Origin: a virus
Reading direction: 5' to 3' (one strand)
Length of the DNA stretch: 22,797 bases
Virus record (IMG/VR): IMGVR_UViG_3300032294_000887
Location: 1-22,797 of that record
Below, one piece after another: positions 2,730 to 22,797 of the stretch (position 1 is the stretch's first letter; each line of letters begins with the position of its first letter). Position numbers and translations under genes: made by a program. The notes below the pieces were generated by a model. That model saw only the letters and a list, made by a program, of their open reading frames with translations, ran no database searches and was not told the origin of the DNA.

Positions 2730-2730
2730 A

Positions 2731-2943
2731 ATGCTCCCTAAAGAAACACCCCCGTTACTCAGGCTTGCTGACGCCGCCCGAGTGTTCAACTTGTCAAAGT
2801 CCACCCTGCTTAGGCTTCGCAACAGCGGAGCAATCAAGACTTTCAAGACCCTTGGAGGACAGCACATGTACTTCAGGGACGAAATCCTAGACTTCATCAA
2901 ACTTAACACCAATGAACTTCAAAAGCCCGACTCCTCACGCTGA
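2731..2943 (+). CDS. Small winged helix-turn-helix DNA-binding protein (MerR/excisionase type)
   Basis: A 70-residue protein that is almost entirely one DNA-binding domain. Residues about 10-30 (LRLADAARVFNLSKSTLLRL) form the helix-turn-helix. The following NSGAIKTFKTLGGQHMYFRD carries the wing with the conserved basic/aromatic pattern of the MerR/excisionase/BldC class, and a last helix follows (EILDFIKL). The start is one base after the terminase stop. The C-terminal 32 bases overlap the portal gene in another frame. Known relatives act as transcription regulators, excisionases or the DNA-binding part of small terminases (lambda Nu1 has a winged helix of this general type). Given its place between terL and portal, a role in recognising packaging DNA is a reasonable inference; a late-gene regulator is the alternative. 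Confidence 0.85.
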   Translation: MLPKETPPLLRLADAARVFNLSKSTLLRLRNSGAIKTFKTLGGQHMYFRDEILDFIKLNTNELQKPDSSR

Positions 2944-5146
2944 TAAACTAGCGTACCACGCAGAGAAGCCAGACATCGAACTGCTTCTCACCGAATACCA
3001 GAGGTCCGCCTTCCACGGAACCATGGTATCGAAGATGAACTACGCCGACGACATCAGGCTCACCAGATGGACTGGCCAGACCGATGACGGCAAAAAGCAC
3101 TCTTGGGCTCGTCCCGACGGAGACCCTGCCTTCCCGTTCGAAGGTGCTTCTGATGTTAGAATCAGACTTGTTGATAGACTCATTAATGACCAGAAAGCCC
3201 TTCTGCTTACGGCATACAAGGGTTGCACACTCAAGGTTGGCGGAACTGAAATCAATGACACCATGTCCGCCGCATCAGCCACAACGCTCATGCGTTGGAT
3301 GGTCGAAACAAAGATTAAGAATGAGTTGCACAAGGAGGCGGAACTGGCCGCAGACTACGCTCTTACTTACGGCTGGTCCGTAGTTCAGGTCACTTGGGAG
3401 CAACAGATGGGCACTAGAATCAACAGCATGAAACTGGATGAACTCCAGAACATGGCCATGGCAGAGGCACAGTCTGGAACCCAGAACGAAGGAACCATTG
3501 GAAAGTTGCTCAACGCCATCTTGGACCCCAAGAAGGAAGACTACGCACTCGCAGTGCTGAAAGACGTCATGCCTCAGATGAAGCAAAGAGACATGAAGAA
3601 ATTCATCAAAGGCATGAGAGAGAACGGCCTCGGAGAAATCCCAGAGGTCTACATTCAGAAAAACCTCCCACACGTCGAAGCACTTAAGCCCTTCGACGAA
3701 GTTTGCTTCCCACCAGAGACGGCTGACCTGCAAAAGGCCCGTGTCATTTTCCGCAGGCAATACATGACTGAGGTTGAACTTCGCTCCACCGCAAAAATTG
3801 CTGGATGGAATGATGAATGGGTGGAAAAGGCCGTGAACAGCATGGGTAATCACTACTACTTTAATGACCCCAACCTGATTCCCACCACTACGATGCTCAA
3901 CTCGAACATCGAAAGAGGCAACAACCTCATCGAGGTCGTCTGGGCTTACTACAGGCAGTTGGACGCAAACGACGTCCCTGCAATCTACTACACTGTCTTC
4001 AACCCTCATTGCGGTGCGGACATGTACGCCAAGCAGGACATTCTCAACTACGCCCACGGGGAGTACCCGTTCGTAGAATACAGACGTGAAAGAAACCGCA
4101 GAGCAGTTGCAGAATCCAGAGGCATTCCAGAAATCAATAAGACCGAACAGGACGAGGTTAAGGCCCAGCACGACGCAATCAGGGATAGAACCGCATTTGA
4201 GGTCCTGCCTCCCGTCAAGGTGGTCAAGCGTATCGGTGCCCTTAATCGCATCGCCCCCGCTCAGGTGCTCCCTGTTTCCAACAAGGACGATTACACTTGG
4301 CTCGAATCCCCGAGAGGCGACGCTGGCATGGCTTTCCAAGTCATCCAGCAGGTCGAGCAGAACTTGGGTAACTACTACGGATTTGCCGTCGGTGAACTTA
4401 TAGACCCCCAGAAGGTGCAGATGCTCAAGCAACTTCAGGTGGACGGCTGGCTCATGTTCTGGAACAGGGTCTACACCCAGATGTTCTCGCTCAGCCTTCA
4501 GTTCATGTCGGAGGAGGAAATCATCCGCATCACTGGTAGCCCCCTCAAGCAGGGCATGTCGGACATCCATAGCCAGTTTGATTTCAACGTACGCTTTGAC
4601 GTTCGTGACACTGACCCAGAATTTGTCCAAAAGAAACTGGAAGCCATTATCAAGACTGTGGTGCCGCTTGATAGCGGAGGCATCATCGACAGAAATAAGT
4701 TGGTCAAACTAGTCATTGAGTCCATCAGCCCTGACGCCGCCCGAGAACTGGTCATCGACCAAGCCACGGCCTCCCAGAAACTGTACAAGGACGTCGTTAG
4801 CGACATCGGAATGATGATGCTTGGCAACGAAGCGTTGTACACCGAGATGGACCCTGCCGCCTCAAGCAAGATGCAGTTCGCTCAAGACATTATGTCTAAG
4901 AATCCGAAGGCCCAGCAGGCCCTACAGAGCGACAGAATCTTCCAAATCCTGTTTGAGAACTACACCAAGCAGTTGCAGTTCTCCATCGACCAAGAAAAGA
5001 ACAAGCAAATCGGCAGAATCGGCGTATCTCCCGCTTCTGAGGAGATTCAGAAGGAGATGGGCGAGGTTCAGGCACAGCAACAGGCTACTCCCCCACCCCA
5101 GCAGACCCAAAACACGACCATTAACGTCAACACACCCATCGCATGA
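2912..5146 (+). CDS. Portal protein (podovirus type)
   Basis: A 744-residue protein immediately after the packaging genes and before scaffold and capsid, the canonical place of the portal, which forms the dodecameric DNA gate at one capsid vertex. The length matches the large portals of P22- or N4-like podoviruses rather than the shorter siphovirus ones. The sequence is mixed alpha/beta with an Asn/Asp-rich N terminus, a long helical middle (about residues 140-260), and a Gln/Pro-rich low-complexity tail (QAQQQATPPPQQTQ) that could be a flexible barrel extension. There is no Shine-Dalgarno, and the start overlaps the upstream gene by 32 bases. Met38 or Met42 are alternative starts, but they would discard coding-like sequence. 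The assignment rests on size, context and general sequence character, not on a catalytic motif. A 451-codon antisense open frame over it is a shadow. Confidence 0.88.
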   Translation: MNFKSPTPHADKLAYHAEKPDIELLLTEYQRSAFHGTMVSKMNYADDIRLTRWTGQTDDGKKHSWARPDGDPAFPFEGASDVRIRLVDRLINDQKALLLTAYKGCTLKVGGTEINDTMSAASATTLMRWMVETKIKNELHKEAELAADYALTYGWSVVQVTWEQQMGTRINSMKLDELQNMAMAEAQSGTQNEGTIGKLLNAILDPKKEDYALAVLKDVMPQMKQRDMKKFIKGMRENGLGEIPEVYIQKNLPHVEALKPFDEVCFPPETADLQKARVIFRRQYMTEVELRSTAKIAGWNDEWVEKAVNSMGNHYYFNDPNLIPTTTMLNSNIERGNNLIEVVWAYYRQLDANDVPAIYYTVFNPHCGADMYAKQDILNYAHGEYPFVEYRRERNRRAVAESRGIPEINKTEQDEVKAQHDAIRDRTAFEVLPPVKVVKRIGALNRIAPAQVLPVSNKDDYTWLESPRGDAGMAFQVIQQVEQNLGNYYGFAVGELIDPQKVQMLKQLQVDGWLMFWNRVYTQMFSLSLQFMSEEEIIRITGSPLKQGMSDIHSQFDFNVRFDVRDTDPEFVQKKLEAIIKTVVPLDSGGIIDRNKLVKLVIESISPDAARELVIDQATASQKLYKDVVSDIGMMMLGNEALYTEMDPAASSKMQFAQDIMSKNPKAQQALQSDRIFQILFENYTKQLQFSIDQEKNKQIGRIGVSPASEEIQKEMGEVQAQQQATPPPQQTQNTTINVNTPIA

Positions 5147-5388
5147 TGTCTGAAGAACGTAAGAAAATCATCAAGTCATTCCAATTCAGGACGCCTGAGG
5201 GCGAAGACCTTTACAAGAGCGTCTTGGTCGTATGCGACTTGGCCCTACAGATTGAGATGTCTAAGGTTATGTCGGCAAACACAGTCGGGGAGGCCAGAAT
5301 TCACTCCGCTGGGCGACTTGACGCCATCAATGACATGCTCCTAGAGATTCAAAGACTCAGGGAAGAGGCCAGAGCAGACCAGTCTTAA
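5143..5388 (+). CDS. Small unrecognised protein between portal and scaffold
   Basis: An 81-residue protein starting with two Met codons (ATG 5143 and ATG 5146), overlapping the portal stop TGA by 4 or 1 bases, so translation is probably coupled to portal. It is mainly helical: a basic N terminus (SEERKKIIKSFQ), a central region with LVVCDLALQIEMSKVM, and an amphipathic C-terminal helix (DAINDMLLEIQRLREEAR) likely to form a coiled coil. There is no signal peptide or membrane segment. Small proteins in this position in podoviruses are often minor head or assembly factors, but no family is recognised here. The gene is followed by the only real intergenic gap in the window. Confidence 0.8.
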   Translation: MMSEERKKIIKSFQFRTPEGEDLYKSVLVVCDLALQIEMSKVMSANTVGEARIHSAGRLDAINDMLLEIQRLREEARADQS

Positions 5389-5489
5389 GGGAAAAGCGAC
5401 TCAAAGCGTTGCGGGAGCCTCGCCACGCTTGCTGGCCAAGTAAAAATAGAGTCAACTTCCAACGCTTCTGGGAGCACTAAACCCTGACT
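5389..5489 (+). other. Intergenic region before the scaffold gene
   Basis: This 101-base stretch is the longest non-coding segment in the window. All other junctions are 14 bases or less. It holds the hairpin at 5406-5428 and, further right, a second GGGAGC word (5470-5475) that repeats the one inside the hairpin (5412-5417) in a partly similar context. I see no convincing -35/-10 pair and no T-tract after the hairpin. Its place in front of scaffold and capsid, which must be made in large amounts, makes it the best candidate for a regulatory site such as a promoter, an RNA-processing site or an attenuator. Confidence 0.45.
5406..5428 (+). other. Hairpin in the pre-scaffold gap
   Basis: The arms 5406-5415 (GCGTTGCGGG) and 5419-5428 (CTCGCCACGC) pair with one mismatch (T5410/C5424) and one G-U pair, leaving a three-base AGC loop. 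The stem is GC-rich and should be stable in RNA. It is followed by TTGCTGG rather than a T run, so it does not look like a standard intrinsic terminator. It could be an RNase processing site, a partial terminator or a stabilising structure at the 5' end of the capsid transcript. Confidence 0.45.
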
Positions 5490-6497
5490 ATGGAAGAAAA
5501 CACCAATCAGCCTAACGCTGACCTCGAACTTGGGACCGAGGTTAATCCCCCCATGACTGATAGCAACTCCGAGGTGACACCCGACTCTTCGGCTAACGAC
5601 AAACTCGCTGATTTCTTCATGCGAGCCTTATCTGACGGGCAGATGAAAGCGGAGAGCGGTAACTCCGAAACCAAAGACACTGAAGCAGAGGCAGAGGAAC
5701 CGACGCAAGAGATTGCGGAAGAACCACAAGCCGAAGCGACCACGGAAGCAGAAACCGATGATGTTCGTCAGGACTACGACGATACTCCTAAGGGGGTTCA
5801 GAAGCGTCTTAACAAACTAACGGCTCTGAGACGTGAAGCAGAGGAACGTGCAAAGAAACTCGAAGAAGAACTCGAGTCTATCAAGCGTCAACAGGCCACT
5901 CCTACCAAACCCGTTACAAATAACCCTTATGCGGAGATGGACACGGAGGAAAAACTCAAGGCCGAGTACGATAGGCAGAGACAGATTCGACTTTTCTGCG
6001 AACGTTACCCAGACGGATACTACGACGAAAGTAACTACGAAAAGAATGTCTCCAAGGACGAGATTGCCAAAGCGAAGGTAGCGGCACTCAGAGCCATGGA
6101 GGAGTTCCTGCCTCAACAGGCTCAGTACATCAATAGCACGAAGGAATACAAGAATCTGGCTCGCAAGGAGTTCCCTTGGCTAGATGACCCTACTGACAGC
6201 CGTGCATCGGCGGCCAGAAAGTTCATCGACGCAGTGCCCGAAATCAAGAAGTTCCCCGACTATGAGATTTACGCCGCCCAGTTGGCTATGGGTATGGTTT
6301 CATACAATACCCAGAAAAAGAACGCCAAGAACTTCGTAAGCAACCCAGTCGTACAGGTCCAGCCCGTGCAAACTTCGTCCGCCCCCCGTCCCACCATGCG
6401 TGTCGATGAGGTTCAGGCCAAGCAAAGCATGGAACGCTTCAGACGTTCAGGCTCAGTCGATGACCTCGCAGAAGTGTTTAAGAGTAAGTTCATCTAA
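5490..6497 (+). CDS. Scaffolding protein
   Basis: A 335-residue protein directly before the major capsid gene, the standard position of the scaffold that guides procapsid assembly and then leaves. The N-terminal 95 residues are very acidic and low in complexity (many Glu, Thr, Ala; for example EAEAEEPTQEIAEEPQAEA). A heptad-like charged coiled coil follows (about residues 105-135, LTALRREAEERAKKLEEELE), then a helical middle. The protein ends in a basic helix-forming segment (MERFRRSGSVDDLAEVFKSK), similar in character to scaffold C termini that bind the coat protein. No Shine-Dalgarno lies close to the ATG. The assignment is from context and composition, which agree well. Confidence 0.85.
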   Translation: MEENTNQPNADLELGTEVNPPMTDSNSEVTPDSSANDKLADFFMRALSDGQMKAESGNSETKDTEAEAEEPTQEIAEEPQAEATTEAETDDVRQDYDDTPKGVQKRLNKLTALRREAEERAKKLEEELESIKRQQATPTKPVTNNPYAEMDTEEKLKAEYDRQRQIRLFCERYPDGYYDESNYEKNVSKDEIAKAKVAALRAMEEFLPQQAQYINSTKEYKNLARKEFPWLDDPTDSRASAARKFIDAVPEIKKFPDYEIYAAQLAMGMVSYNTQKKNAKNFVSNPVVQVQPVQTSSAPRPTMRVDEVQAKQSMERFRRSGSVDDLAEVFKSKFI

Positions 6498-6511
6498 TCC
6501 AAAAAACTATC
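6498..6511 (+). promoter_or_regulatory. Major capsid gene leader without a Shine-Dalgarno
   Basis: Only 14 bases separate the scaffold stop from the capsid ATG, reading TCCAAAAAACTATC. There is no purine-rich GGAGG-like word here or in the codons just upstream. The A-rich leader may support initiation through an unstructured, S1-type mechanism. This is notable for what should be the most highly translated virion gene. Confidence 0.5.
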
Positions 6512-7864
6512 ATGGCTTCCCTATTCGAAAGACAGTTCCAGAATCAGCGTCCCCTTCAGGGTGCTAGAGTCGGTATCAGAGAAGAACTCTCTGACCTCAT
6601 CGCCAACGTCGATGCCAAGGACACGCCCATCACCTCGATGGCCAAGCGTGGTTCTAAACCCGGAAATACGACGTTCAGATGGCAGGTTGACCGCCACCCC
6701 GACCCCTCCATTGAACTCGGCGTTCTCGATGGTGCTGACGTTGACCCTACCTCCCCCGCCACCAACCCTGCCTTCAAGCAGTACACCCTCGGCTACAGAG
6801 AAGAAGTGGAAAACAACATCCACATGTTCCGCAGAGCCGTTCACGTGTCTAACCTGACGCAGGACATCCTCAACATCGCTGGTGTTAAGGACGAACTCAG
6901 CCGCCAGTTGGGCAAGGCCACCATCGACCTTAAGCGTTCGATGGAAATGACCTTTACCTCTGACATCCTCCCCGCCATCGACGATGGTGCGACCCCGTAT
7001 CGCACCCGCTGTCTCACGGCTTGGATTAAGAACGACCTCCTTGGTGCCACCACCAACGTTCAGGCCAAGTACGGCTCCCAGAACCAGTCCATCCGCCCTG
7101 TCGGTGAAAACTTCCGCACCCCGTCCTCGTCTATCGTGGGCACTGGCGAAAGCGTTGACCAACTCGGTGAAAACACTGTTCAGGACCTCATGACCTCGGT
7201 CTACGAGCAGACTGGTCAGTTCAAGAACCACGAAGCCGTCGTTGGCACTGCCCTCAAGCGTCAGTTCACCAACCTCGTCTACACCAAGGCTTCCCCCGCC
7301 ATGGAGTCCAGAATCACGAACAACAGAGATGCCAACTCCGACAGCATCAAGGTGTCCGTGGACTACTTCGAGGGCGATTTCGGTAAGTTGGCCCTTATCC
7401 CGACCCAGTTCCTCCATGCGGGTGTCAACCCCTACCGCATCGAAGACACTGGCTCTGGCTCTACTGGTGCCTCCTACACCGCCACTGGTCGCTACGCCGT
7501 CTATGATGGCATCACCGCCGCTGGCAACCTCGTCTGGCTCAAGGACGCTACCACCAATAAGTTCGAAAGAGTCGCCGTCGGCACCGCTAATGCCGTCCCT
7601 GCTCGTTTCGCTACCGAAGCCGAAGCCAAGGTCTACGTCAACCTCCACGCCAACAACGCTAAGACCAAGGGCTTCATCATCCCGTGGGACATGCTTGAAA
7701 TCCGCTACGGCGGCAACATCGCTCAGGTCCGTGAACTGACCGAAAACGGCGGTGGTCCTCGCAGAATGATGGAAGCGATGGCGGCTCTGGTCGTCCAGTC
7801 GCCCCTGACGTTCGGCATGCTGGACTACAAGGCGGCTAACTCCAACGGCGGTCTGCTCTCGTAA
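6512..7864 (+). CDS. Major capsid protein (HK97 fold, SU10/DUF5309-like)
   Basis: A 450-residue coat protein placed right after the scaffold. The N-terminal pattern REELSDLIANVDAKDTPITS followed by a NTTFRWQVD strand matches my memory of the SU10-type/DUF5309 major capsid family. A GYREEVENNIHMFRRAVHVS segment and a long helix (LSRQLGKATIDLKRSMEM) also fit an E-loop and spine-helix arrangement of the HK97 fold; this mapping is an inference. Codon use is more biased than in its neighbours (GCC, ATC, CTC, GAC, TTC), as expected for high expression. That bias leaves a 486-codon antisense open frame, which is not a gene. The gene contains the only CCGG and the only Pro-Gly in the window (6660-6663). 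The role is firm; the exact family name is less so. Confidence 0.92.
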   Translation: MASLFERQFQNQRPLQGARVGIREELSDLIANVDAKDTPITSMAKRGSKPGNTTFRWQVDRHPDPSIELGVLDGADVDPTSPATNPAFKQYTLGYREEVENNIHMFRRAVHVSNLTQDILNIAGVKDELSRQLGKATIDLKRSMEMTFTSDILPAIDDGATPYRTRCLTAWIKNDLLGATTNVQAKYGSQNQSIRPVGENFRTPSSSIVGTGESVDQLGENTVQDLMTSVYEQTGQFKNHEAVVGTALKRQFTNLVYTKASPAMESRITNNRDANSDSIKVSVDYFEGDFGKLALIPTQFLHAGVNPYRIEDTGSGSTGASYTATGRYAVYDGITAAGNLVWLKDATTNKFERVAVGTANAVPARFATEAEAKVYVNLHANNAKTKGFIIPWDMLEIRYGGNIAQVRELTENGGGPRRMMEAMAALVVQSPLTFGMLDYKAANSNGGLLS

Positions 7865-8992: not shown

Positions 8993-9292
8993 ATGTCTCA
9001 CATTCACCAGCCCCAAAACATTCCCAACGTCGATGTGACTGTGTTCAACAGCATCGGCACCAAGGTCAAAGTGCTCGACGCAGTCAGAAACAGACGTGTT
9101 TTCGGCATCGTCAACACGTCGAACGACACTCTTCTCAACTTCTACCTTCAGCCTAATGGTGCTGGCTCTCCTATCGTGCTTTCTCACGAAAAGAACTTTA
9201 ACAAGCATGACGGCGGCTCGTTCGAACTGAACGGCTACAATGGTGAAGTCTGGGTAGATGGCGAAGGATACGTCTATCACTACGCACAGTAA
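8993..9292 (+). CDS. Small beta-rich virion protein, unrecognised
   Basis: A 99-residue protein starting one base after the adaptor stop and overlapping the next start by one base. It has alternating hydrophobic/polar residues typical of beta strands (VDVTVFNSIGTKVKVL, RRVFGIVNTSNDTLLNFYL), ends with GEVWVDGEGYVYHYA, and has no cysteine, signal peptide or membrane segment. Such compact beta domains serve as capsid decorations or tail attachment modules in phages. The position at the start of the appendage genes makes a base or linker for the following repeat protein plausible. The family is not recognised, and the coding call is firm from the tight junctions. Confidence 0.78.
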   Translation: MSHIHQPQNIPNVDVTVFNSIGTKVKVLDAVRNRRVFGIVNTSNDTLLNFYLQPNGAGSPIVLSHEKNFNKHDGGSFELNGYNGEVWVDGEGYVYHYAQ

Positions 9293-11752: not shown

Positions 11753-13138
11753 ATGCCTAGAGAAATTAAACCAGACGGCGACCTGAGATTCGAAGGATTC
11801 GCATCCTTCCCAAACAGTGCTTCCTTTCCCCCAGAGTCTGGGATGGTTGAGTACTCTGAGAACATGGAGTTTAATGAAGGTGTTGCCATGCCTAGGCTTG
11901 GTAGCGTCCTCGCTGGAACCGCTGGTGCGGCCATTGAGTACGCTTGTGCCGCCTCATCTACCAACGGGGACAGCATTCTGCTTTGGGGTGCCAACCAAAG
12001 ATTCAACTGCGACACTGGAGTGTTCACTTCGGTCAATCTGGCGGCTAAGCAAAAAGCCCGTGGTCAGGGGTATCAAGACGCACTGACCATGGAGACGGCA
12101 GATACGGACTTCGTCGCTGGGGCAAACATCGTCGAGCGGCTGGTTACGGCAAAAGGGGATAAACTTAAGTTCTCACTCTACTCTGGGAATCAGCCATACG
12201 AGCCAGATTCGGCTTATCTTGTTCAGGGGACGTACGACTCTATTCAGGCAATCGAGCCAGACATGAACGCCATGCTGGTTTTTGGCAAAAGGAGCATCTA
12301 CTCTGTTGCGGCTGGACTCGGCAGACAGGCAAACGTCAACAGATTGCCGAATCCTCAGGTGTTCCACCAGATTCAGAAGATTGCATCTCACGACGGATTG
12401 GCCGCAAAAGACGGAATCTGCCGACTGGGCCCTCAAGTGTTGTTCATGGACACGGACGGAATCAAGGTCGTAAAGTACTCTGGAGGCAGAAACGAGTACC
12501 AAGATGGTTCTTCTCCGATTACGTTCCTGATTCAGGACATCATTGACCTGATTGACTCGTCTAAACTCGGCCAAATTACTGCGGCTTCATGTCAGGGTCG
12601 TTGCTACTTCACGCTTCCGTTGCTCGCCCCGTACAACAGGACTGTCGTCTTGGCCCTAAACCTCACTAATAAGAACCCTCTGGAGTCTATCTACGTTTAC
12701 CCGCAGTCAATAGACGCCGTCGTGTCTGCAAGAAAGGACGGGAAGATGAGACTCTGGGGTGTGAACTACGGAATGGGACGCATCTACCTGCTTAACGAAG
12801 GTAGCACGGACAATGGCTCGGCCATCGTTGCGAAAATCCGTAGCCGTAGTTACATGTTCCAGTCCCACTCAGAAAAGAAGTATGACGAATGCTTCCTGTC
12901 GCTAGACACAAAAGGCCATGCCGAAGTAGAAATGAACTTCATTTCCGTAAATCCAGACGGGAAGTGGCTCATGGATAAGTTCTCCGCTAATCTTGGAACT
13001 GCTGTTAGACGTGCTTTGACCAACAAAAAGTCGATGAGCGGCAAGTTGGAAATCGTTGTTAAATCTGGTAGGCCTTGCATCTACAGCATAGGTTTGGAGG
13101 CCTCAATTGTCGGTAAGTCTATTTTCTCGTCGTTCTGA
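11753..13138 (+). CDS. Tail nozzle-like structural protein
   Basis: A 461-residue protein. The N-terminal part has SENMEFNEGVAMPRLG (residues about 35-50), a pattern I associate with tail nozzle or tail-tubular-B-like proteins of podoviruses, where an ENM-x-F-x-x-G-x-x-x-x-R-x-G element starts a beta-propeller-like platform. The body is mostly beta strands with repeated short hydrophobic segments (NAMLVFGKRSIYSVAA, GPQVLFMDTDGIKVVKY, GRCYFTLPLL, KMRLWGVNYGMGRIYLL). Such proteins form the tube below the adaptor and can hold fibres. The length is shorter than T7 gp12 but near other podovirus nozzles. It starts two bases after the previous stop and ends on a TGATG overlap. Confidence in the name is moderate; the structural role is likely from place and character. 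Confidence 0.65.
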   Translation: MPREIKPDGDLRFEGFASFPNSASFPPESGMVEYSENMEFNEGVAMPRLGSVLAGTAGAAIEYACAASSTNGDSILLWGANQRFNCDTGVFTSVNLAAKQKARGQGYQDALTMETADTDFVAGANIVERLVTAKGDKLKFSLYSGNQPYEPDSAYLVQGTYDSIQAIEPDMNAMLVFGKRSIYSVAAGLGRQANVNRLPNPQVFHQIQKIASHDGLAAKDGICRLGPQVLFMDTDGIKVVKYSGGRNEYQDGSSPITFLIQDIIDLIDSSKLGQITAASCQGRCYFTLPLLAPYNRTVVLALNLTNKNPLESIYVYPQSIDAVVSARKDGKMRLWGVNYGMGRIYLLNEGSTDNGSAIVAKIRSRSYMFQSHSEKKYDECFLSLDTKGHAEVEMNFISVNPDGKWLMDKFSANLGTAVRRALTNKKSMSGKLEIVVKSGRPCIYSIGLEASIVGKSIFSSF

Positions 13139-14058
13139 TGACTACTCCTAACCCCAATCCTTACTCGTACCCTCCGTACCCTAATCAGTCGTACGTATCG
13201 GTCCATTCCATGGACCTTCAGGGTGTCGGTGCTGGGTTCTACATCCAAGAGATGAAGAACCTGAATACGACGATTGATAATTCGACCACTCCTCCGACTG
13301 TAACAACGACGGATACGTACCCTGCTGGTACGAGTTGGGTGCGTGGTGCAAAATACCAAATCTGGAGAGGTTCTTGGGGGCAAGTCTGGGTTCCTAGTAA
13401 GACGCCTCCCTACAACGTTACGTCCAGTAGTGGTTCTGGCTGGCCGCTTTGCTTCGCAACTCTCGGGGAGGCACAACTCGCATTGTCCCAATCCGTGTAT
13501 TCCCAGCCAGAGGGATACACGTTCTGGGGACGCAATCCGAGATTTGAAATCGCCCAGACCATAGAAGCCTACAACGCCAATGCAGAGGAATTTGCCGAAG
13601 CAGACGGGAAGGTGACAACTCACCTTACCTCTAGGGCATTAACTTCGGCTAACTCAATTTTCGGGTATTACTCGGCAAAACTCGTCAATCAAGACAGTAA
13701 CAACCAGTACGTACTAGGCCTGAGTGCGGCGAGCGGTGGCGGACAGAATACGACCTATCTTGCCAACTCCCTCTCCGTGCAACAACTGGTAGACGCCGCT
13801 GACAAGGCCCTAGCATCCGCTCAGGGAATCCCAATCGTGGTTCCGTTCGAGTCTCCGCTTATCTCTGATTCTCATGCCTCAGCCGTTGAGGCAAAGAACG
13901 CTGGGGAAATCCGTGACCAGCAAATCAGACAAACTATCGCTTCCGCAGGTGGCGTCCAGCAAGGCTGGGACATTGCAAACCAGAGAGCCTATGACTGGGA
14001 GGGTGCCTCCATCGTTATGGGTGCATTCGGACAGAAAGCCGCCGCCGCACAGACTTAA
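13138..14058 (+). CDS. Unrecognised virion protein
   Basis: A 306-residue protein. The N terminus is Pro/Asn/Tyr-rich (NPNPYSYPPYPNQSYV), followed by a beta-rich region with Thr/Ser stretches and several Trp residues (SWVRGAKYQIWRGSWGQVWV) up to about residue 130. The rest is helical with Ala, Gln and Asn (FEIAQTIEAYNANAEEFAEA) and ends AAAAQT. Residues 50-130 could be an exposed beta domain, and the C-terminal half looks like a core-type helical protein. It sits between the nozzle-like gene and the internal-protein-like genes, so it may be a tail or internal protein. No catalytic motif is seen and the family is not recognised. Confidence 0.78.
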   Translation: MTTPNPNPYSYPPYPNQSYVSVHSMDLQGVGAGFYIQEMKNLNTTIDNSTTPPTVTTTDTYPAGTSWVRGAKYQIWRGSWGQVWVPSKTPPYNVTSSSGSGWPLCFATLGEAQLALSQSVYSQPEGYTFWGRNPRFEIAQTIEAYNANAEEFAEADGKVTTHLTSRALTSANSIFGYYSAKLVNQDSNNQYVLGLSAASGGGQNTTYLANSLSVQQLVDAADKALASAQGIPIVVPFESPLISDSHASAVEAKNAGEIRDQQIRQTIASAGGVQQGWDIANQRAYDWEGASIVMGAFGQKAAAAQT

Positions 14059-14063
14059 CCAAC

Positions 14064-14957
14064 ATGCAATTCAACTTCCTAGGAGGACAGTCCCAAAGGG
14101 ACACGCTCGCCGCCGCATTGGGCCAAAGAAACCCAGTCTTGGAGGCACAACTCGAGTTTAACAAGAACGCCTTTACGACTGGCGTACAAGGTGCTGGTCA
14201 GACCATGCGTACGGCCATGAGTCTCGCACAGCAACAGAAGGATTCCTTGCTTAGAAACAAGACCGCCAGAGAGGAAGGCGAACTCAACAGGGCGAGTGCC
14301 ATGGATACCCTCACCAAGAGGATGGAGTTCGACAAGAGCCAAGCCGCCGAGGCTACCGCTCAAAGGCAGGCCGAAATCGAGGCTGGCATTGCCCAGCGAA
14401 AGATTGAAAGAGAGGAAGCCTCCGCCCTGAGAAGAGAAGAGGAGGACGCTAAGAGGGCGGCCAGAAAAGCCGACCTTGATGACGCCAGAGCAAGGGACAA
14501 GGAAGAGTACGATAGGCGTCTTGCCGAAGCCGTTAAAGCCAAGGACGCCGCCGCCAAAGGCAAATTTGCCGCCGTCCTCAACTCTTACAACCAAGAGTTG
14601 GGACTCAACGACGATGACCACAAGTTTGACGACTGGGAGGAAGAAGATGTAGACATCAAGACCCCAAGCGGAGAAATCGTTGGACAAAGAAAGCGTAAAT
14701 TCAGCAAGACTAGGAGGGCCATGGAGAAGCACAGGGATGACCTGCTCGCCTCAATCAACGCAACCACTGACCCGAACGAAAGAACCGCTTTGGTCGAAAG
14801 CATCATCAACGATAAGAAACTTATTTACGGAAACGTTAGGGGCGTTCTAGACGGAAACTGGAACAAGAAACAAAAGGCCAAAACAACCAAGGCCACCGAG
14901 GACGGCGTAGACCCAGCCTCCGTAGCCCGTAGACTTTCTGGAGGAGGAAAATCCTAA
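14064..14957 (+). CDS. Coiled-coil internal virion protein candidate
   Basis: A 297-residue protein. Residues about 45-165 form one very long charged helix, rich in Ala, Glu, Arg, Lys and Asp (for example QRKIEREEASALRREEEDA), almost certainly a coiled coil. An acidic stretch follows (DDDHKFDDWEEEDVD), then basic segments (GQRKRKFSKTRR), and the end is Gly-rich (RRLSGGGKS). It has no membrane segment. Long helical proteins in this place in podoviruses are ejection proteins (the internal core of T7-like phages), which is my inference. There is no Shine-Dalgarno before ATG 14064. The Gly/Gly-encoding C terminus doubles as the strong Shine-Dalgarno of the next gene. Confidence 0.75.
   Translation: MQFNFLGGQSQRDTLAAALGQRNPVLEAQLEFNKNAFTTGVQGAGQTMRTAMSLAQQQKDSLLRNKTAREEGELNRASAMDTLTKRMEFDKSQAAEATAQRQAEIEAGIAQRKIEREEASALRREEEDAKRAARKADLDDARARDKEEYDRRLAEAVKAKDAAAKGKFAAVLNSYNQELGLNDDDHKFDDWEEEDVDIKTPSGEIVGQRKRKFSKTRRAMEKHRDDLLASINATTDPNERTALVESIINDKKLIYGNVRGVLDGNWNKKQKAKTTKATEDGVDPASVARRLSGGGKS
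14942..14947 (+). promoter_or_regulatory. Shine-Dalgarno for the gene at 14957
   Basis: AGGAGG with 9 bases before ATG 14957 is the best ribosome binding site in the window. It is embedded in the Gly-rich C-terminal codons of the preceding gene. Its presence shows that this phage uses Shine-Dalgarno initiation at least sometimes, and it fixes the start of the next gene together with the TAATG overlap. Confidence 0.7.
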
Positions 14958-16057
14958 TGGAACTTGATGCCCCAGCAAGCCTGAGGAACAAGGCCTCAGT
15001 CCCGAAGTACACTATACCCGATGTTGCCAACAAGGACTACACGGAGGGCACCGAAGGAGAGAGTTGGCTGTCAAAGGCACCCCGTGTTGGTATGGCCGTA
15101 GGCCGTCACATCGCTGGGCAAATGGCCATCCCCCCTACGCTTAGGCCAGAGTCGCTTGAAAACGACCCATCCGAAATGGCCTATCTAGGCACTGGGAATC
15201 AGGCAAGCGACCTCGCACCATGGTTAATTGACAGGGCGAACGACGTTACCACATACCGACTGGACAGGTTCATACCCAAAGCCATCGGCGGAGAGGCCAT
15301 CAGGGCTGGAACAAGCAAGTTCATGGCTGATGCCGCAACGTATGGGGCACAAAAGGGATTTCTCCCTAGCATGGCGAGGGGTATTGTTGATTCCAGAATG
15401 TTCCCAACCCTCACGGGCAAAATGGGGGCTACGGCCAACATCGGGGCTGGCCTTGGCGTCGGCGTAGGATTGCCTTATGCCGCATCATTTGTGGCAGATG
15501 AAATCCGTGGAGGCGGCAATCCGCACCAGCAGTACCAAAAGGCCATGGAGGCTGGAAACCTAGAAGAGGCAGGCCGCATAGCCGAAAGCATTAATACGAG
15601 AAACAGGGCGGCACTTGCTACTGAAACCATCGCAAATGGAGTCGCTACTGGCTCTACGATTGGCACCAAAGGCATGATTGCTGGAGGCCTTGCCGCCACT
15701 GGCGTAGTCGGACTTCAAAACATTTTCCCAGAAACAACTTTTGCCCAAGGAGACCAAGAAGCCGTCAAGAGGGCTATGGATTGGAGAAAATCCCCTCAAG
15801 GTAAGTCAATGATTTTCAGGGAAGATTTTGCCAAAAAATTTGGCACTACAGGGAAGTTCGACGAGGCCGATTTCAAGGCCTTTGAAGACCAGTATTCCTA
15901 CTACCTAGACTCGGGAGATGATGACTCTGGTGATTTTCAAACCGAATACATCGGCAAACTTAGGGCTCTCGCCAGAAGCGGAGACCCAGCCGCCATCGCT
16001 TCCATCAGAAGAATCGGTGCACTTGGGAAAGCCTATAACGCTAAAAACAACAAATGA
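14957..16057 (+). CDS. Internal virion protein candidate with glycine-rich hydrophobic segments
   Basis: A 366-residue protein. Two long glycine/alanine-rich hydrophobic stretches are visible: about residues 156-180 (MGATANIGAGLGVGVGLPYA and onward) and 222-256 (with GMIAGGLAATGVVGL). They resemble glycine-zipper membrane segments found in phage proteins that build a channel through the cell envelope during DNA ejection. The N terminus is polar, residues 185-220 are a charged helix, and the C terminus is an acidic then basic helical domain (DFKAFEDQYSYYLDSGDDD). It has no signal peptide. It overlaps the next gene by four bases (ATGA). The ejection role is an inference from the segments and the neighbours; no family is recognised. 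Confidence 0.75.
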   Translation: MELDAPASLRNKASVPKYTIPDVANKDYTEGTEGESWLSKAPRVGMAVGRHIAGQMAIPPTLRPESLENDPSEMAYLGTGNQASDLAPWLIDRANDVTTYRLDRFIPKAIGGEAIRAGTSKFMADAATYGAQKGFLPSMARGIVDSRMFPTLTGKMGATANIGAGLGVGVGLPYAASFVADEIRGGGNPHQQYQKAMEAGNLEEAGRIAESINTRNRAALATETIANGVATGSTIGTKGMIAGGLAATGVVGLQNIFPETTFAQGDQEAVKRAMDWRKSPQGKSMIFREDFAKKFGTTGKFDEADFKAFEDQYSYYLDSGDDDSGDFQTEYIGKLRALARSGDPAAIASIRRIGALGKAYNAKNNK

Positions 16058-17619
16058 CCAAAAGACTATACAGGGTGGCGGTTGAAGCCGCCGCCGACGC
16101 CGCAGATGACTTGAACGTAAAGCCAGCAAGAATGATGGTGGAGGCGGCAAATGACAAAAAGGCAAAAGAGGCCGCATTGACCGCCATCTCCCAGAACCCA
16201 GAAACTGCGGCTAGGACTAAAGGAAAGGTTGTGGTTGATGTCGAAGAGTTCAACAAACAACCAGTCACTGAGAAGTTTCAGGTGGCATCTCCTCAGGAAG
16301 TCAGAAAAGTCACAGCGGCTGGGGCAGGCAAAAAGAGCGGCGAACAGGGTGAGGTAATAATTCAGCCTCACAAACTAACAACCGCAGATGGCACGGAGTA
16401 CGACCTTCCCGCCTTTGACCCAAAAGACCCCAAGTACCAAGTCATGGGCATGCGTACTGCCACTGGGGAGGACCTGTTCACGCTCGGCGACGCCAAGTTG
16501 AGGGAGCAAAATCTTACCATTTTCCCGAATTCATGGGAAAAGGCTCTGTCCAATGAAGCGAACCCGAAAATGAGAACGCTTGGAAGGGCTTTCGGTATCC
16601 ATGACGACATGGATAAACTCAAAATCGACTCTTTGTTTGGAAGGGCTTGGAATACGGGATGGAGAGTTGGCTCTGGAGCCCTCGCAACTGAGGTAGGAAC
16701 TTCAGTTATTGATGGTACTGATTTTCAGGGAAGACAAAAGGGGGACAGATTCGTGGGAGACGGATGGGTCTCTCAAGGCATTGAGGGTGCAGGCATGGGT
16801 ATTTCATCCGCCGCCAATTTGCTCACTGGAGGCAAAACCGAAAAAGAAAAACTAGCGGAAGGCGAATCTGCCAAGAGACAGAAAATCCAAGAAGCCAAAG
16901 AAAATAAGGCATTTTCGGCAGTGCTTAGGATGTCACCCGCTGGACAGTTCTCCAAGCAAGCCATCGACAACAACACGCAAACCATTGCTAGGGTAATTGG
17001 CGATAAGTCCGAAAACGGCTCCATGGCACATAGGACTTATGAAGAGGCAATCCGCCCGTTCTTCAATACGGCACAGGGCGACAGCGATGAAGACAGAATC
17101 TCCAACGCCGCTAGGGCGATGTTCCAGCGTCTCAGTGCAGACCAAATTGTTGAGGCACTTCTTTTTGGCTCAGCCAAGGCCGAGAAAGACGTACACGCCG
17201 CTAGGTCGCAAAGGCAGGAGGCCGAAGGAGTAAGGCCAGAAGAATTCAAGCCGTCCGCACAAGACGCTTTCGCTAAATACCTGAGTAAGGTGCAGAAGGA
17301 CGACCCGAATACTCCTTACATTACTTTCCCATCCAGCATGACATCTTCATCCAAGGACGGAGTGCGAAGAACTGGCTTCATGGTAACTAGGGCCCTCCCA
17401 GACGGGACGGGCGAAAGGGTGTTCGTTGTACCTGTCATCGTTCCCAAGAAGACGCTTGCCGAGCAGACCCTTCAGGGAACTAAGGCCGCAAAAGGCGACT
17501 CGGATGTTCCGAAACTGAGCGACAGGATGAGCGAAAGCAGGTTTGAAGTCATCTACCTTGACGCAAATCCGAGAAATCCGAAAAAGCCAGAAATTCCAGC
17601 AGACCAAATCATCTGGTAA
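16054..17619 (+). CDS. Unrecognised large internal virion protein candidate
   Basis: A 521-residue protein coupled to the previous gene by an ATGA overlap. It begins with an Ala/Lys-rich helix (residues 1-55), then a Lys/Val/Glu region, a beta-like stretch with HKLTTADGTEYDLPAFDP (about 105-125), a glycine-rich mildly hydrophobic segment (about 205-260, GWRVGSGALATEVGTSV and GIEGAGMGISSAANLLTGG), and a charged helix (EKEKLAEGESAKRQKIQEAK). The C-terminal third is mixed alpha/beta with strands such as GERVFVVPVIVPKK and FEVIYLDANPRN. There is no enzyme motif that I can recognise. Place, size and the glycine-rich segment agree with an ejected or internal protein, which remains an inference. Confidence 0.75.
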   Translation: MTKRLYRVAVEAAADAADDLNVKPARMMVEAANDKKAKEAALTAISQNPETAARTKGKVVVDVEEFNKQPVTEKFQVASPQEVRKVTAAGAGKKSGEQGEVIIQPHKLTTADGTEYDLPAFDPKDPKYQVMGMRTATGEDLFTLGDAKLREQNLTIFPNSWEKALSNEANPKMRTLGRAFGIHDDMDKLKIDSLFGRAWNTGWRVGSGALATEVGTSVIDGTDFQGRQKGDRFVGDGWVSQGIEGAGMGISSAANLLTGGKTEKEKLAEGESAKRQKIQEAKENKAFSAVLRMSPAGQFSKQAIDNNTQTIARVIGDKSENGSMAHRTYEEAIRPFFNTAQGDSDEDRISNAARAMFQRLSADQIVEALLFGSAKAEKDVHAARSQRQEAEGVRPEEFKPSAQDAFAKYLSKVQKDDPNTPYITFPSSMTSSSKDGVRRTGFMVTRALPDGTGERVFVVPVIVPKKTLAEQTLQGTKAAKGDSDVPKLSDRMSESRFEVIYLDANPRNPKKPEIPADQIIW

Positions 17620-17625
17620 CACTCT

Positions 17626-18591
17626 ATGGAAGACGACAACGACTACTCTCAATACGCAGGTGACGTCAAAGGACAGGCCAACCTGACTGTTGGCCAGATG
17701 TTTGGCCAGAGGGGCATGGCCCAGCCTCAGGATGAGAGGGAAATCTCCGAGCAGTTGACTGGCAATCCGTACGCACACGTCGGATGGGGAAAGACGCCAG
17801 AATACCTTAAGGCTAGGGCGGCTTATGGTCAGGAGCAAAGAAAGGCCCTGCAAAAACAACAGGAAGCCGCCAACAATGCCGACTTCAGAATCGGAGATGC
17901 GAAGTTCTACGCTGGCATTGGTGATTACAGTGCCGTCGAATCCGTAATCAAGAGCAAGGGTCCTGCCCTGTTTCAGATTGGCGAGGCAATTGACTTTGAA
18001 GGCGAAGACGAAAACGGAAAGCCCAGCCCGTTTCAATTAGTGATGGCACCCAGAGGCAGTTATGGGGTCGATGACGGACAGGGCGGAGTCTCTACTGTAC
18101 CCGCCTATCAAATTGCCAAGCGTATGGGTGTCAGGACTGTCCCGTTCAAGGGGGGAGACCAGAAGGCAATGGATTTCAGAAACCTCACCACTAGGGTTCA
18201 GAAGTTCTACTCCATGTCTAATCAGTTGAGAAAAATCTACAAAGGCAACACGTACCTCGGAAGTCTAGACCCGTCTAATGATGCCGCTATGGCTAAGGCA
18301 CTAGAGTCCAACCTTAAGATGGACTACCTCAGCATCATGAAAGACATGAAGGGCATGGGCGGTAATGTTTCCGACAATGACATGGCCATCGCAGAGAGCA
18401 TGGTCCCCCAGAGAGCCTCAAGCATGTTCACCCGACTAGGTGGCAACGAAATGTTGCTACTGGACAACGTTCAGGAAAACGTCTTCGAAAAACTTAAAGG
18501 TGTTGCTGGAAGCAATGGAATCGACCTAATCGACACACGACAGGACTCCAAGAAGCGTAGGCTTATCAAGGGCACTGTCGAACGCCGATAA
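17626..18591 (+). CDS. Unrecognised internal virion protein candidate
   Basis: A 321-residue soluble-looking protein. It starts with an acidic Asp/Asn/Tyr-rich N terminus, then a Gln/Ala/Lys helix (EQRKALQKQQEAANNA), and a mixed middle (FQLVMAPRGSYGVDDGQGG). The C-terminal helical region contains YLSIMKDMKGMGGNVSDNDM, with ESMVP and MFTRLGGNE after it. The KG-x-G-x-VSD-x-[DE] element followed by a P and a GG resembles a short pattern seen at the C terminus of several phage internal and ejection proteins; I cannot name the family. The last residues are basic (KKRRLIKGTVERR). It sits six bases after the previous gene and overlaps the giant next gene by one base (TAATG), so it may be a partner of that protein. 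Confidence 0.75.
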   Translation: MEDDNDYSQYAGDVKGQANLTVGQMFGQRGMAQPQDEREISEQLTGNPYAHVGWGKTPEYLKARAAYGQEQRKALQKQQEAANNADFRIGDAKFYAGIGDYSAVESVIKSKGPALFQIGEAIDFEGEDENGKPSPFQLVMAPRGSYGVDDGQGGVSTVPAYQIAKRMGVRTVPFKGGDQKAMDFRNLTTRVQKFYSMSNQLRKIYKGNTYLGSLDPSNDAAMAKALESNLKMDYLSIMKDMKGMGGNVSDNDMAIAESMVPQRASSMFTRLGGNEMLLLDNVQENVFEKLKGVAGSNGIDLIDTRQDSKKRRLIKGTVERR

Positions 18592-21500
18592 TGCAAAACC
18601 CAGACGATTCCCCGACCAACCCCGACATCGAGTTAATCGAACGGGCCGCTAAGCAACTTTACAGTGGCGGGGGGTTGGACATTGCCAACCAAATCAGGTC
18701 TAAGCCAGATGCCGATGGCGACGTCATCAGCGATGGCCAGATGACCAATGACGACGTTTATGACTTCATTCAGGGAGACAGAACGAGAATCTTTGATACC
18801 ACATCCCCAGACGGGGAGTTGCTTTACCTTCAGTTTGAAGAAGCCAACAAACGTAGAAACAAGTTTACGTTCGAGAACTTCAAGCAGATGGTTAATATCA
18901 TCTCGACTGTCCCTGCCGACATACTTTCTGGGGTAGGAAGAAACATCACATCGCCAGCCGTAATGTCGGCGTCCATTGCTGACGGCGTGGCCCGTGACAT
19001 GAGGGACTTGGTAGGACTTTTGACCCAGTCTGAAGACCCCTCGTCGCCGCTGTTTTGGGCAAAAGACCTCATTCATGGAACTGGCACTGTTAAGTCCAGA
19101 ATGGAGCAGTTTAACGAGGCTAGATGGTGGGGCAACCGAAGCAACGAACTTGAAGAAGGCAAGGCCGACATTCTCTCGGATTGGGTTCCCGAAAGGTACA
19201 AAGAGACCGCAAAGAACCTAATCGACAGAAAGTTTGCAAACGCCCTGTCTTACATCGGCCTAGACGCTCCCCACATGATTAGGGACGCTTGGAAGCGTAA
19301 GGGCCTCGGAGGAATGGAGGCATCCATAAAGGCTTTCAAATCCGAGACAGAGGCATACCAGAGCATCGCAAGAGATGCCACCGCTACTCAGGATTGGTTC
19401 GATAACAATGCGGCGAAGTTTGCTAGGCTAGGAAAGAAACTTACTGGCGAGGCCATGGTCGGCACCGCCGCCGTAGTTTCCAAGCCCTTCGAAATGATTA
19501 AGGAAAGGGTCATGAGGGGCTCTGAAGAAATCGAAATGAGAGTCGGTCACATCCCGAACGAGATTTCGAATGGTGCCACTACGCTCATGACGGACACTGT
19601 TGGTGCCGTAGCAAAAGACGTAGAACTAGGCCCGTTCAGAGGCATTCTTTTCTCTCTTGGTGTTAAGCCAATCGCAGAGTATGCGAGCGTGTTTGGCAAC
19701 GAACTGATTGACGCCGCTAACGGCGTTGTTGCCGTAAAGGGAGGTCACATCGGTCAAGACCTCATGGGCAGGCTGGCCCTCAATGGTGGCCGCATCTCCA
19801 TGAGCAAAGAGGCTCAGGTCGTCGCCAAGTTCACTAATGTCGTCGTAGGATGGCCTGCTTCCATGGCTTTCCCTACCTTCAAGAGGGCAGTGGGCGACGC
19901 CGCATACATGGGACTTCTTGGCTACGCCAACGCCCGTGGCGAAGGTGCGTCAAGCGGCATGGGCGTAGGATTTGCTTGGGGTGGCCTTTCTGGCGGCCTT
20001 AGGCACATCCATAACGTCTACAACCAAAGCATCGCACACTCAAGAATCATAGACAATTACGACAACGCCCAACTTCCGCACCTCTACAAGCAGAACCCTA
20101 AGAATGCGGAAGAAATAAGGGCTTTCCTTAAGTTCGTAGATTCCAAGGGCGACAAGAGAGTTTCAGCCACAGTCAGAGCACAACTCATGGCTGGCCATGC
20201 GGCTGACGCAAAAACGGAACTTAGATACAGAACTGCCAACGAGATGGTTGAGGAGTTCGGAATGGACGCATTCATCGCTCAGGTCGGAGAGGGCGGCTCT
20301 GGTGCAAAAGGTGCCGAGATGTACATTGATGGGAAGAACATCATCTGGCTCAACAAAGACTACGCATCTCCAGAAACGCTTACCCACGAATACTCCCACA
20401 GGTTCCTAGACATACTTTTCAAGCGTAACGACAACTCATCCAGAGAAGCGATTCGCTCTTTCTTTGGAGTTGGAACTGGAACTGGTGAAGGCCCGATACC
20501 TGACGTACTCAAGGCCATCTTCATTTCAGAATACAGCAAAGACCGCTTCAAACTTGATGACAAATGGCTCAATGGCGACAGTTCAGCGGCCACCTACAAG
20601 GACAAAAACGGCGTCATTCAGAAAGACATAGGCTTCGGAAACAAGGCCTACTCTTTAGAGCAGATTAGGGAAATCAGAAGGCGTCTGCTTGAAGACCCAG
20701 AAAACATGTTCAGCCCTGTCAACATTAACGGGGTGTCTACCATTCGTCTTTTCAAGGAGTTTCCTATCGCAGAAAGGCTAATGCAGGAGGTTTTTGCCTA
20801 CAATCAGTCGAACAGTTTGCTGAGAAAGTCTCCCGACATCTTCCTGCGTAATCCCAGTTTCAAGACCATTCGCTCAACGATGGAGAACTGGTTCACCCTG
20901 ATGAACCAGAGAAAGGTCAATGACCTTGAGTCGGCAGGCGTATTGATTAGAAAGAAGCAACAGGAGAGGGCGGAGGGTTTTGACAATTCCGCCACCCTGC
21001 TGGAGTCCATCTTCTGGGACGACGGCAAGTTCATGTCGATGGGCTTGCTGGACAGTTGGAGCGACCAAGTCATGAAGGACGTCCTCAGGCACGGAGACGT
21101 CAACGTAACCACGCTGAGCGGAGACAGGCTCAAGGCATACATGGACCAGACTGGCAAGCAGAGGTTCATGAATGGCGGAAGAATCAAATCCAAGCAGGAG
21201 ATTGAGGCACAAATTACAGCCGACGCTGACCGCATCGCTGGGGTGCTTGATGCACTCCCAGACGCAGTTAAGCCCCAATGGAACACCTCCGCAACTGGCT
21301 CGAAGAGAATCAGGCTTACTGACCTGTCTTCGGAGGCTTGGAAGGCTATTGAGGATTCTGGAATCTACTCCAAGTCAGAGTTCGACCTGCTCAAGGGCAT
21401 GTCGGATGTCATCAAGGCCGTGGATGCTGGGAAGCCAGTGTTCAACACCTTTACTGGCCAATACCTAGGCAACAGCAAGCAGGTGGTCGAGGCCGCCCTC

Positions 21501-22797
21501 GGCGAAAGACTAAAAGGCCGTCAGGTGCCAGTCACGCTCAGGCACTTTGCACCTTTCTCAATCGAGTTAATCGTCAGCAAGTTCGACGAACTTGGCAACC
21601 CCCTTAAGAATCCTCGCTCCCACGTAACCATCCACGCCATGGATGTGAGCGTGTTGAACAAGCGTAAGATGAACCAGTGGCAGAAGAGCGAGGTCAAGTC
21701 GCTGTTCAGGGACTTCGGGCACTTTTCTGAAACCTTTGTCTATTGGTTCGAACAGCACTCCCTTGATGCCAGCCAGAGAAAGCCCTCCGCTGAATACCTG
21801 AAGCCCGAGTTTGGCTCCAACGCCGAAAGGGTAAGGGACATCATGTATGAAACTTGGGGTGGCCGTAAGCGTAATGACGAGGCTTACATCAACGCTCCAG
21901 AAGGCTATGCTGGAGGAAGAGACGGACCCCTTTACCCAATCCACTCTCTGAGATTCGACCTGCTGGCGAACGTTCTCAAGCAGTCTCAGATTTTCCCAGA
22001 GGCTTTTGGCGGCAACCTAGGTGCCCTCAGATACAATGAAGGCATAGCCTATGAACCCATGCGTCGTAACGCCATGGTCGGCTCGTTCGTACAAAGGGAA
22101 CTCGGAAACGGACGCAGGTTCTACACCGACGGAAACGGATACGAAATCAGAGGAGAAGAGCCCAAACTCAAGTTGTTCAACATGTTCGGCAATCTTGTCG
22201 GCGTGTTCAAGACGATGGCAAAGGCTCAGGCGGCGGCTGAAAGGAACATGAGGAAACAGCCTATCGAAGAGATGGGCCTTAAGAAGGACGATTACGGCGA
22301 CGAGCCCATCAACGACAGGCTTGTTGCATTGATGCCGAAGCGTTCTGATGTCTACGCAGGCAGGTCCAACCTGATGCTCTACAGGAATAAGAACGGAGAG
22401 TACGTATCCAGCCCTCTAAAGGTAAACCATTCTAAGGTTCAGCAGTTTGCCAACGCCGCACTGGCAAACAACCAGCACAACAATTACGACTGGAATCTTG
22501 TCACCACTGTAAAACTCAGGGACCTAGTAGACAACCCGAAGGAGTGGAGCGATGTACTTGGTGACGCTTTCGACAAACTTGAAGTCACGCACTCGCCACT
22601 TGCCAGCCTGCACGGAGGCGTAGTCTACGGACTCCGCTCTGGAGCCCAAGGCATGAGGCAGTTCGGCGTAGACCCTCAACTCTTGCAAGGCAAGGGAATC
22701 GAATCCTTCCAGTCCTATGTAGCCGTGCACCTGCAGGCGATGATTGCCCTCAAGCAGAAGGATGCACTTGCGATGCACACTGCCTTGGCGTCCTACG
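18591..22797 (+). CDS. Giant polyvalent-type internal virion protein with HEYSH metallopeptidase motif (partial, runs off right edge)
   Basis: The frame starting at ATG 18591 is open for 1402 codons to the window end, so the protein is larger still. It starts on a TAATG overlap. The first 400 residues are mostly charged helices. Residues about 415-470 are hydrophobic and glycine-rich (GMGVGFAWGGLSGGL), a possible membrane element. At 599-603 is HEYSH, inside YIDGKNIIWLNKDYASPETL followed by THEYSHRFLDILF. An aliphatic strand, a helix and H-E-x-x-H in this order are what zincin metallopeptidases show, including the metallopeptidase domains of phage polyvalent proteins. His599, His603 and Glu600 would be two zinc ligands and the catalytic base; the third ligand is not identified. 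The rest is a mosaic of helical regions without a motif I recognise. Injection into the host with the DNA is an inference. Confidence 0.85.
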   Translation, partial: MQNPDDSPTNPDIELIERAAKQLYSGGGLDIANQIRSKPDADGDVISDGQMTNDDVYDFIQGDRTRIFDTTSPDGELLYLQFEEANKRRNKFTFENFKQMVNIISTVPADILSGVGRNITSPAVMSASIADGVARDMRDLVGLLTQSEDPSSPLFWAKDLIHGTGTVKSRMEQFNEARWWGNRSNELEEGKADILSDWVPERYKETAKNLIDRKFANALSYIGLDAPHMIRDAWKRKGLGGMEASIKAFKSETEAYQSIARDATATQDWFDNNAAKFARLGKKLTGEAMVGTAAVVSKPFEMIKERVMRGSEEIEMRVGHIPNEISNGATTLMTDTVGAVAKDVELGPFRGILFSLGVKPIAEYASVFGNELIDAANGVVAVKGGHIGQDLMGRLALNGGRISMSKEAQVVAKFTNVVVGWPASMAFPTFKRAVGDAAYMGLLGYANARGEGASSGMGVGFAWGGLSGGLRHIHNVYNQSIAHSRIIDNYDNAQLPHLYKQNPKNAEEIRAFLKFVDSKGDKRVSATVRAQLMAGHAADAKTELRYRTANEMVEEFGMDAFIAQVGEGGSGAKGAEMYIDGKNIIWLNKDYASPETLTHEYSHRFLDILFKRNDNSSREAIRSFFGVGTGTGEGPIPDVLKAIFISEYSKDRFKLDDKWLNGDSSAATYKDKNGVIQKDIGFGNKAYSLEQIREIRRRLLEDPENMFSPVNINGVSTIRLFKEFPIAERLMQEVFAYNQSNSLLRKSPDIFLRNPSFKTIRSTMENWFTLMNQRKVNDLESAGVLIRKKQQERAEGFDNSATLLESIFWDDGKFMSMGLLDSWSDQVMKDVLRHGDVNVTTLSGDRLKAYMDQTGKQRFMNGGRIKSKQEIEAQITADADRIAGVLDALPDAVKPQWNTSATGSKRIRLTDLSSEAWKAIEDSGIYSKSEFDLLKGMSDVIKAVDAGKPVFNTFTGQYLGNSKQVVEAALGERLKGRQVPVTLRHFAPFSIELIVSKFDELGNPLKNPRSHVTIHAMDVSVLNKRKMNQWQKSEVKSLFRDFGHFSETFVYWFEQHSLDASQRKPSAEYLKPEFGSNAERVRDIMYETWGGRKRNDEAYINAPEGYAGGRDGPLYPIHSLRFDLLANVLKQSQIFPEAFGGNLGALRYNEGIAYEPMRRNAMVGSFVQRELGNGRRFYTDGNGYEIRGEEPKLKLFNMFGNLVGVFKTMAKAQAAAERNMRKQPIEEMGLKKDDYGDEPINDRLVALMPKRSDVYAGRSNLMLYRNKNGEYVSSPLKVNHSKVQQFANAALANNQHNNYDWNLVTTVKLRDLVDNPKEWSDVLGDAFDKLEVTHSPLASLHGGVVYGLRSGAQGMRQFGVDPQLLQGKGIESFQSYVAVHLQAMIALKQKDALAMHTALASY

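What the first reader, a model, noticed from the sequence alone, without database searches (positions are those of the whole stretch)
18591..22797. Giant injected-type protein with a zincin motif and unidentified domains
At least 1402 residues in one frame, with HEYSH at 599-603 following a strand and helix as in metallopeptidase domains of phage polyvalent proteins, and a Gly-rich hydrophobic segment shortly before it. The context is a run of ejection-type proteins. Such proteins are known to deliver counter-defence enzymes with the DNA. In a phage whose genome shows signs of heavy restriction pressure, a protease or other domain acting on host defence at entry would make sense. That link is speculative.
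Basis: partly seen in the sequence, partly recalled or inferred. Interest (0 to 1): 0.62.

Follow-up and report, generated by a model that had tools for sequence, protein, structure and literature searches.

The report
Giant phage polyvalent protein, two zincins
The window ends inside the first quarter of a roughly 5,700-residue phage protein, probably injected into the host with the DNA, that carries two conserved zinc-protease sites; the protease reading is right, the link to anti-restriction is not supported.

Summary
The ORF at 18591-22797 is open at the contig end and codes for 1402 residues, with HEYSH at 599-603. It is only the start of a much larger protein: in relatives the same gene is one uninterrupted frame of about 5,400-6,460 codons, about 36-40% of a ~48-kb genome. 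Across 34 relatives the motif is kept (HExxH, or HExxxH in one clade), and an invariant Glu (window E733) on a later helix is the likely third zinc ligand. A 269-residue model (pLDDT 83, pTM 0.76) shows the zincin layout; its best viral structural match is a 'Large polyvalent protein associated domain' protein. Beyond the window the relatives have a second zincin matching the LPD23-linked polyvalent zincins (hhalign probability 99.5%) and an EEIQSD-type domain. It is a new, very large variant of the polyvalent proteins of Iyer et al. 2017, with no relative found in 50,697 annotated phage records. But unpurged relatives carry the same protein and zinc site, so the counter-restriction link is unsupported. 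Self-processing of the giant polypeptide is the likelier role.

The parts
18591..22797 (+). N-terminal 1402 codons of the giant protein gene, cut by the contig end; relatives have 5,400-6,460 codons
19815..20042 (+). Conserved Gly-rich hydrophobic segment, about residues 409-484
   Evidence: one of the strongest conservation blocks in the family alignment
20142..20948 (+). Zincin-like metallopeptidase domain (site 1), residues 518-786
   Evidence: alignment A7, model pLDDT 83.1, pTM 0.76, fold searches
20385..20399 (+). HEYSH, residues 599-603: two zinc-ligand histidines and catalytic Glu (predicted)
   Evidence: kept in 34 relatives, as HExxxH in one clade
20787..20789 (+). Glu733, predicted third zinc ligand, in QEVFAY on a later helix
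   Evidence: invariant in 34 sequences; matches the Glu helix of the N4 virion RNA polymerase peptidase
21357..22349 (+). Most conserved domain of the window part, residues about 923-1253, function unknown
   Evidence: 54% mean column identity over 22 members, no family match
13138..18591 (+). Five packed genes (306, 297, 366, 521, 321 aa) before the giant gene; ejection proteins by position only
   Evidence: ORF table; no family match; no LUZ24 match
1101..7864 (+). Head module: terminase large subunit 1101-2729, probable portal 2912-5146, scaffold 5490-6497, major head protein 6512-7864
   Evidence: PHROGs for terminase, scaffold and head protein; LUZ24 gp66 and gp62 matched; portal by position

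Best explanation
The ORF is the N-terminal quarter of a giant (about 5,700 aa, roughly 600 kDa) polyvalent protein of an uncultivated phage with a LUZ24-type head module. By analogy it is packaged and ejected with the DNA. HEYSH plus E733 is a zinc-metallopeptidase site; in relatives a second zincin with LPD23 and an EEIQSD-type domain lie further on. Most likely the zincins cut the giant polypeptide itself, during packaging or after entry, to release its parts. Shown here: gene size, conservation of both metal sites, fold layout, relation to polyvalent modules. Inferred: packaging, injection, zinc binding, catalysis, self-cleavage.
For: Single frame of 5,420-6,460 codons in relatives. HExxH/HExxxH plus Glu kept in 34 sequences. 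Model with N-helix, three strands, motif helix and Glu helix, the layout given for polyvalent MPTases, including the HEXXXH form (PMC5512222). Best viral fold match is a polyvalent protein, E 3.6e-3, prob 1.00. Second zincin matches LPD23-bearing polyvalent proteins, prob 99.5, E 5e-23. EEIQSD domain E 2.6e-6. Both metal sites are kept in all members whatever their restriction-site state, which fits a core role such as processing.
Against: No virion proteomics. Site 1 has no significant Pfam, PHROG or PDB match. The site 1 to N4 profile match is not better than motif-kept shuffles. N4 virion RNA polymerase is packaged uncut although it holds such a domain (PMC5512222). Self-cleavage is untested.
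Confidence: 0.6

Rival explanations
1. The zincin is an effector that cuts host proteins, for example defence proteins, early in infection.
For: Iyer et al. name this as one possible role of such domains (PMC5512222). The window genome is under strong restriction pressure.
Against: The protein and its zinc site occur alike in relatives with and without restriction-site avoidance. The purge of sites is already an escape. No host target or antirestriction partner domain was found.
Confidence: 0.2
2. The giant protein mainly builds the ejection channel or fills the head, and its zincins are folds kept for packaging or structure rather than for cutting.
For: The region holding the N4 zincin is needed for encapsidation while the protein stays uncut (PMC5512222). 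The Gly-rich hydrophobic block and the N-terminal region are strongly conserved. Position after the tail and small structural genes.
Against: All metal-site residues, including the catalytic Glu of both sites, are kept, which a purely structural role would not need.
Confidence: 0.15
3. HEYSH is a chance motif in a protein that is not a peptidase.
For: No significant domain-database hit; one HExxH by chance in 1402 aa is not very rare.
Against: Conservation of motif and Glu over 34 sequences and the zincin order of elements in a confident model.
Confidence: 0.03

Closest known systems
Phage-type polyvalent proteins with zincin-like MPTase domains (Iyer et al. 2017, PMC5512222)
   Same: Very long multi-domain phage protein; zincin with HExxH or HExxxH and a Glu on a later helix; LPD23-linked second zincin; EEIQSD-type domain
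   Different: About 5,700-6,460 aa; site 1 and the most conserved domain match no Pfam or PHROG family; no antirestriction methylase/helicase module detected
N4 virion RNA polymerase (gp50, 3500 aa)
   Same: Very large phage protein with a HExxH zincin; similar SxETLxHExxH and E-x-[FM]-A-[YW] helices
   Different: N4 polymerase region not detected in the compared stretches of the giant profile; overall profile match to the N4 peptidase not better than motif-kept shuffles
Thermus phage P23-45 tape measure protein, 5,002 aa (PMC10770324)
   Same: Giant single-chain virion protein with an added enzymatic domain
   Different: It sets the length of a very long tail and carries an RNA polymerase; the present phage has a podovirus-type gene order
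LUZ24-type podoviruses and Phage C75C1 (OQ984151)
   Same: Similar gene order; TerL and major head protein related; a large gene near the end of the structural module
   Different: No sequence relation found between the N-terminal part of the giant and LUZ24 gp50, or between the giant profile and C75C1 ORFs

Membership tests
Zincin-like metallopeptidase (polyvalent MPTase), site 1 | HExxH or HExxxH motif plus downstream Glu as third ligand | tested here: met
   kept in 34 sequences
Zincin-like metallopeptidase (polyvalent MPTase), site 1 | Core of N-helix, three strands, motif helix, Glu helix | tested here: met
   model and its secondary structure; order as in PMC5512222
Zincin-like metallopeptidase (polyvalent MPTase), site 1 | Significant sequence or fold match to a known member | tested here: inconclusive
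   BFVD polyvalent protein E 3.6e-3, prob 1.00; PDB zincins top but not significant; N4 profile P 8e-4, shuffles 6/59
Zincin-like metallopeptidase (polyvalent MPTase), site 1 | Zinc bound and peptide bonds cut | not testable with these tools
   needs biochemistry
Phage polyvalent protein (Iyer et al. 2017) | Several unrelated domains in one very long chain | tested here: met
   two zincins, LPD23-like segment and EEIQSD-type domain in relatives
Phage polyvalent protein (Iyer et al. 2017) | Packaged in the virion and delivered with the DNA | not testable with these tools
   inferred from position after structural genes
P1 Dar antirestriction proteins | Sequence relation to P1 DarB or DdrB | tested here: inconclusive
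   no match in four of five stretches of the giant profile; the first stretch failed to run. Site 1 alone against DdrB: P 0.024, not significant

The most novel reading that the evidence does not exclude
A ~48-kb podovirus-type phage puts 36-40% of its genome into one ~600-700 kDa virion polyprotein that two built-in zincins cut into separate effectors during or after entry: a polyprotein strategy for injected phage proteins, larger than the 3,500-aa N4 and 5,002-aa P23-45 examples met here.
Probability: 0.3. Interest if true: 0.75.

Novelty: new variant of a known kind. Interest (0 to 1): 0.55.

Why it matters
It extends polyvalent proteins to one of the largest phage proteins known to me. 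It shows one orthologous zinc site in both HExxH and HExxxH form, and it gives a family of more than 30 genomes in which self-processing of an injected giant can be tested. It also offers a natural contrast between restriction-purged and unpurged phages that share the same protein.

Tried and rejected
Direct Pfam/PHROG/PDB sequence searches of the window protein and of full-length relatives: nothing above chance. tblastn and megablast against INPHARED: none. Bacterial and archaeal genomes: no relative of the giant protein or of the head protein, hence no host clue. First structure model (776 aa) was too multi-domain for a fold match. N4 polymerase, DarB and DdrB: no match in four of five stretches of the giant profile; the first stretch failed in the program. 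LUZ24 gp50: no relation to the N-terminal part. Insert-based explanation of why the longer clade lacks site avoidance: the extra length is scattered over the protein plus a C-terminal HTH-like tail, not one antirestriction domain.

Full report
What was checked. The ORF at 18591-22797 starts with ATG, overlaps the stop of the preceding gene (TAATG), is open at the contig end and codes for 1402 residues. HEYSH is at 599-603. The window is a whole IMG/VR record of 22,797 bases, a fragment. No annotated phage in INPHARED matches it by DNA or by this protein.

The rest of the gene. One close IMG/VR relative (27,964 b) has the same gene at 53-55% identity, still open after 5664 codons. Searching with the major head protein gave 77 related contigs. 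Of 40 records searched, 34 carry the giant gene, with frames of up to 6460 codons and no internal stops. The longest contigs are mostly 47-52 kb, and in two or three the gene runs across the contig ends, which suggests circular permutation and a genome near 48 kb. The gene therefore takes roughly 36-40% of the genome. pN/pS of 0.3-0.5 over the whole gene indicates purifying selection (synonymous sites are near saturation in most pairs). One pair (L114, L115) shows pS 0.33 over the whole gene but 0.6-0.75 in its 5' regions, a sign of recombination.

The zinc site. The aligned motif is HExxH in two clades and HExxxH in the third. In 34 non-redundant sequences the motif and a Glu about 130 residues downstream (window E733, in QEVFAY) are kept. 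The domain model (window residues 518-786) has pLDDT 83 and pTM 0.76: N-terminal helix 5-21, strands 25-30, 57-62 and 65-71, helix 78-95 with the motif, helix 208-228 with the Glu. That is the order Iyer et al. give for polyvalent MPTases, and they describe the HEXXXH form too (PMC5512222). Fold search: among PDB hits a zinc metallopeptidase (4l7a) is first, with MATCAP and DPP3 also high, none significant. In BFVD the first hit is a 'Large polyvalent protein associated domain-containing protein', E 3.6e-3, prob 1.00. Against the N4 virion RNA polymerase peptidase profile, site 1 scores P 8e-4, but motif-kept shuffles reach that score in 6 of 59. The Glu-helix block, tested alone, picks the N4 Glu helix out of 383 positions, reciprocally (56 of 2000 column permutations as high). 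Site 1 is thus well supported as a zincin, with its exact relatives unresolved.

Other modules, seen in relatives. Near residue 2158 (numbering of the 5664-aa relative) lies HExQH with an invariant downstream Glu. This region matches a widespread family of phage proteins; of six scanned, five carry LPD23 and some ART-PolyVal, LPD3 or MuF_C. hhalign gives probability 99.5%, E 5e-23; motif-kept shuffles never reach the observed score (0 of 59). Near 4757 an EEIQSD-type domain matches the EEIQSDWH domain of other large phage proteins, E 2.6e-6, with controls at or above 0.09. Some members end in an HTH-like tail (read by eye). The presence of the second and third modules in the window's own gene is inferred from orthology, since the contig stops at residue 1402.

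Context. TerL and major head protein are LUZ24-like. The order TerL, probable portal, scaffold, head protein, tail genes, five small genes, giant gene resembles LUZ24. Tube-protein and ejection-protein assignments were not confirmed by sequence.

The restriction idea. The window lacks GATC, AGCT, GCGC and CGCG and has one CCGG, where 52-76 of each are expected. A whole 47.6-kb relative has 0 GATC against 201 expected. But the clade with the longest proteins (6,326-6,460 aa) shows no such purge for these sites and keeps both zinc sites. The protein is therefore not tied to restriction pressure, and the purge is itself the escape route. The counter-restriction reading is not excluded but has no support.

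Mechanism. Best supported: a packaged polyvalent giant whose zincins process it. Shown: gene, size, conservation, fold layout, relation to polyvalent modules. Inferred: packaging, injection, zinc binding, catalysis, self-cleavage. The rivals (host-protein effector; ejection channel with non-cutting zincins) are scored in their own section.

Noticed in passing
window 1-22797; relatives L004, L113-L118, L120, L124-L126; contrast L121, L122, L129, L131: Near-total absence of five 4-base palindromes (GATC, AGCT, GCGC, CGCG, CCGG) in most of two clades, none of it in the third; L119 avoids GGCC instead of GCGC, L130 and L132 lack only GTAC.
   Followed up: partly
L121 residues 3506 and 5027; L131 residues 3499 and 5024: Two additional HExxH motifs in this sub-clade (HEIAHKP and HEIGHSRF); the second sits about 50 residues before the EEIQSD or EEVQSD motif.
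   Followed up: no
window 9292-11750: A Gly/Tyr/Asn-rich 465-aa gene and a Cys-rich repeat gene (353 aa), where relative L175 has different genes: possible variable receptor-binding region.
   Followed up: no
L114 and L115 (giant gene): 5' regions strongly diverged but whole-gene synonymous divergence low and identical C-terminal ends: recombinational mosaic.
   Followed up: no
L117, L118, L121, L122, L131 C-termini of the giant protein: Helix-turn-helix-like tails in some clades only, read by eye; no Pfam hit for the L122 C-terminal part.
   Followed up: no
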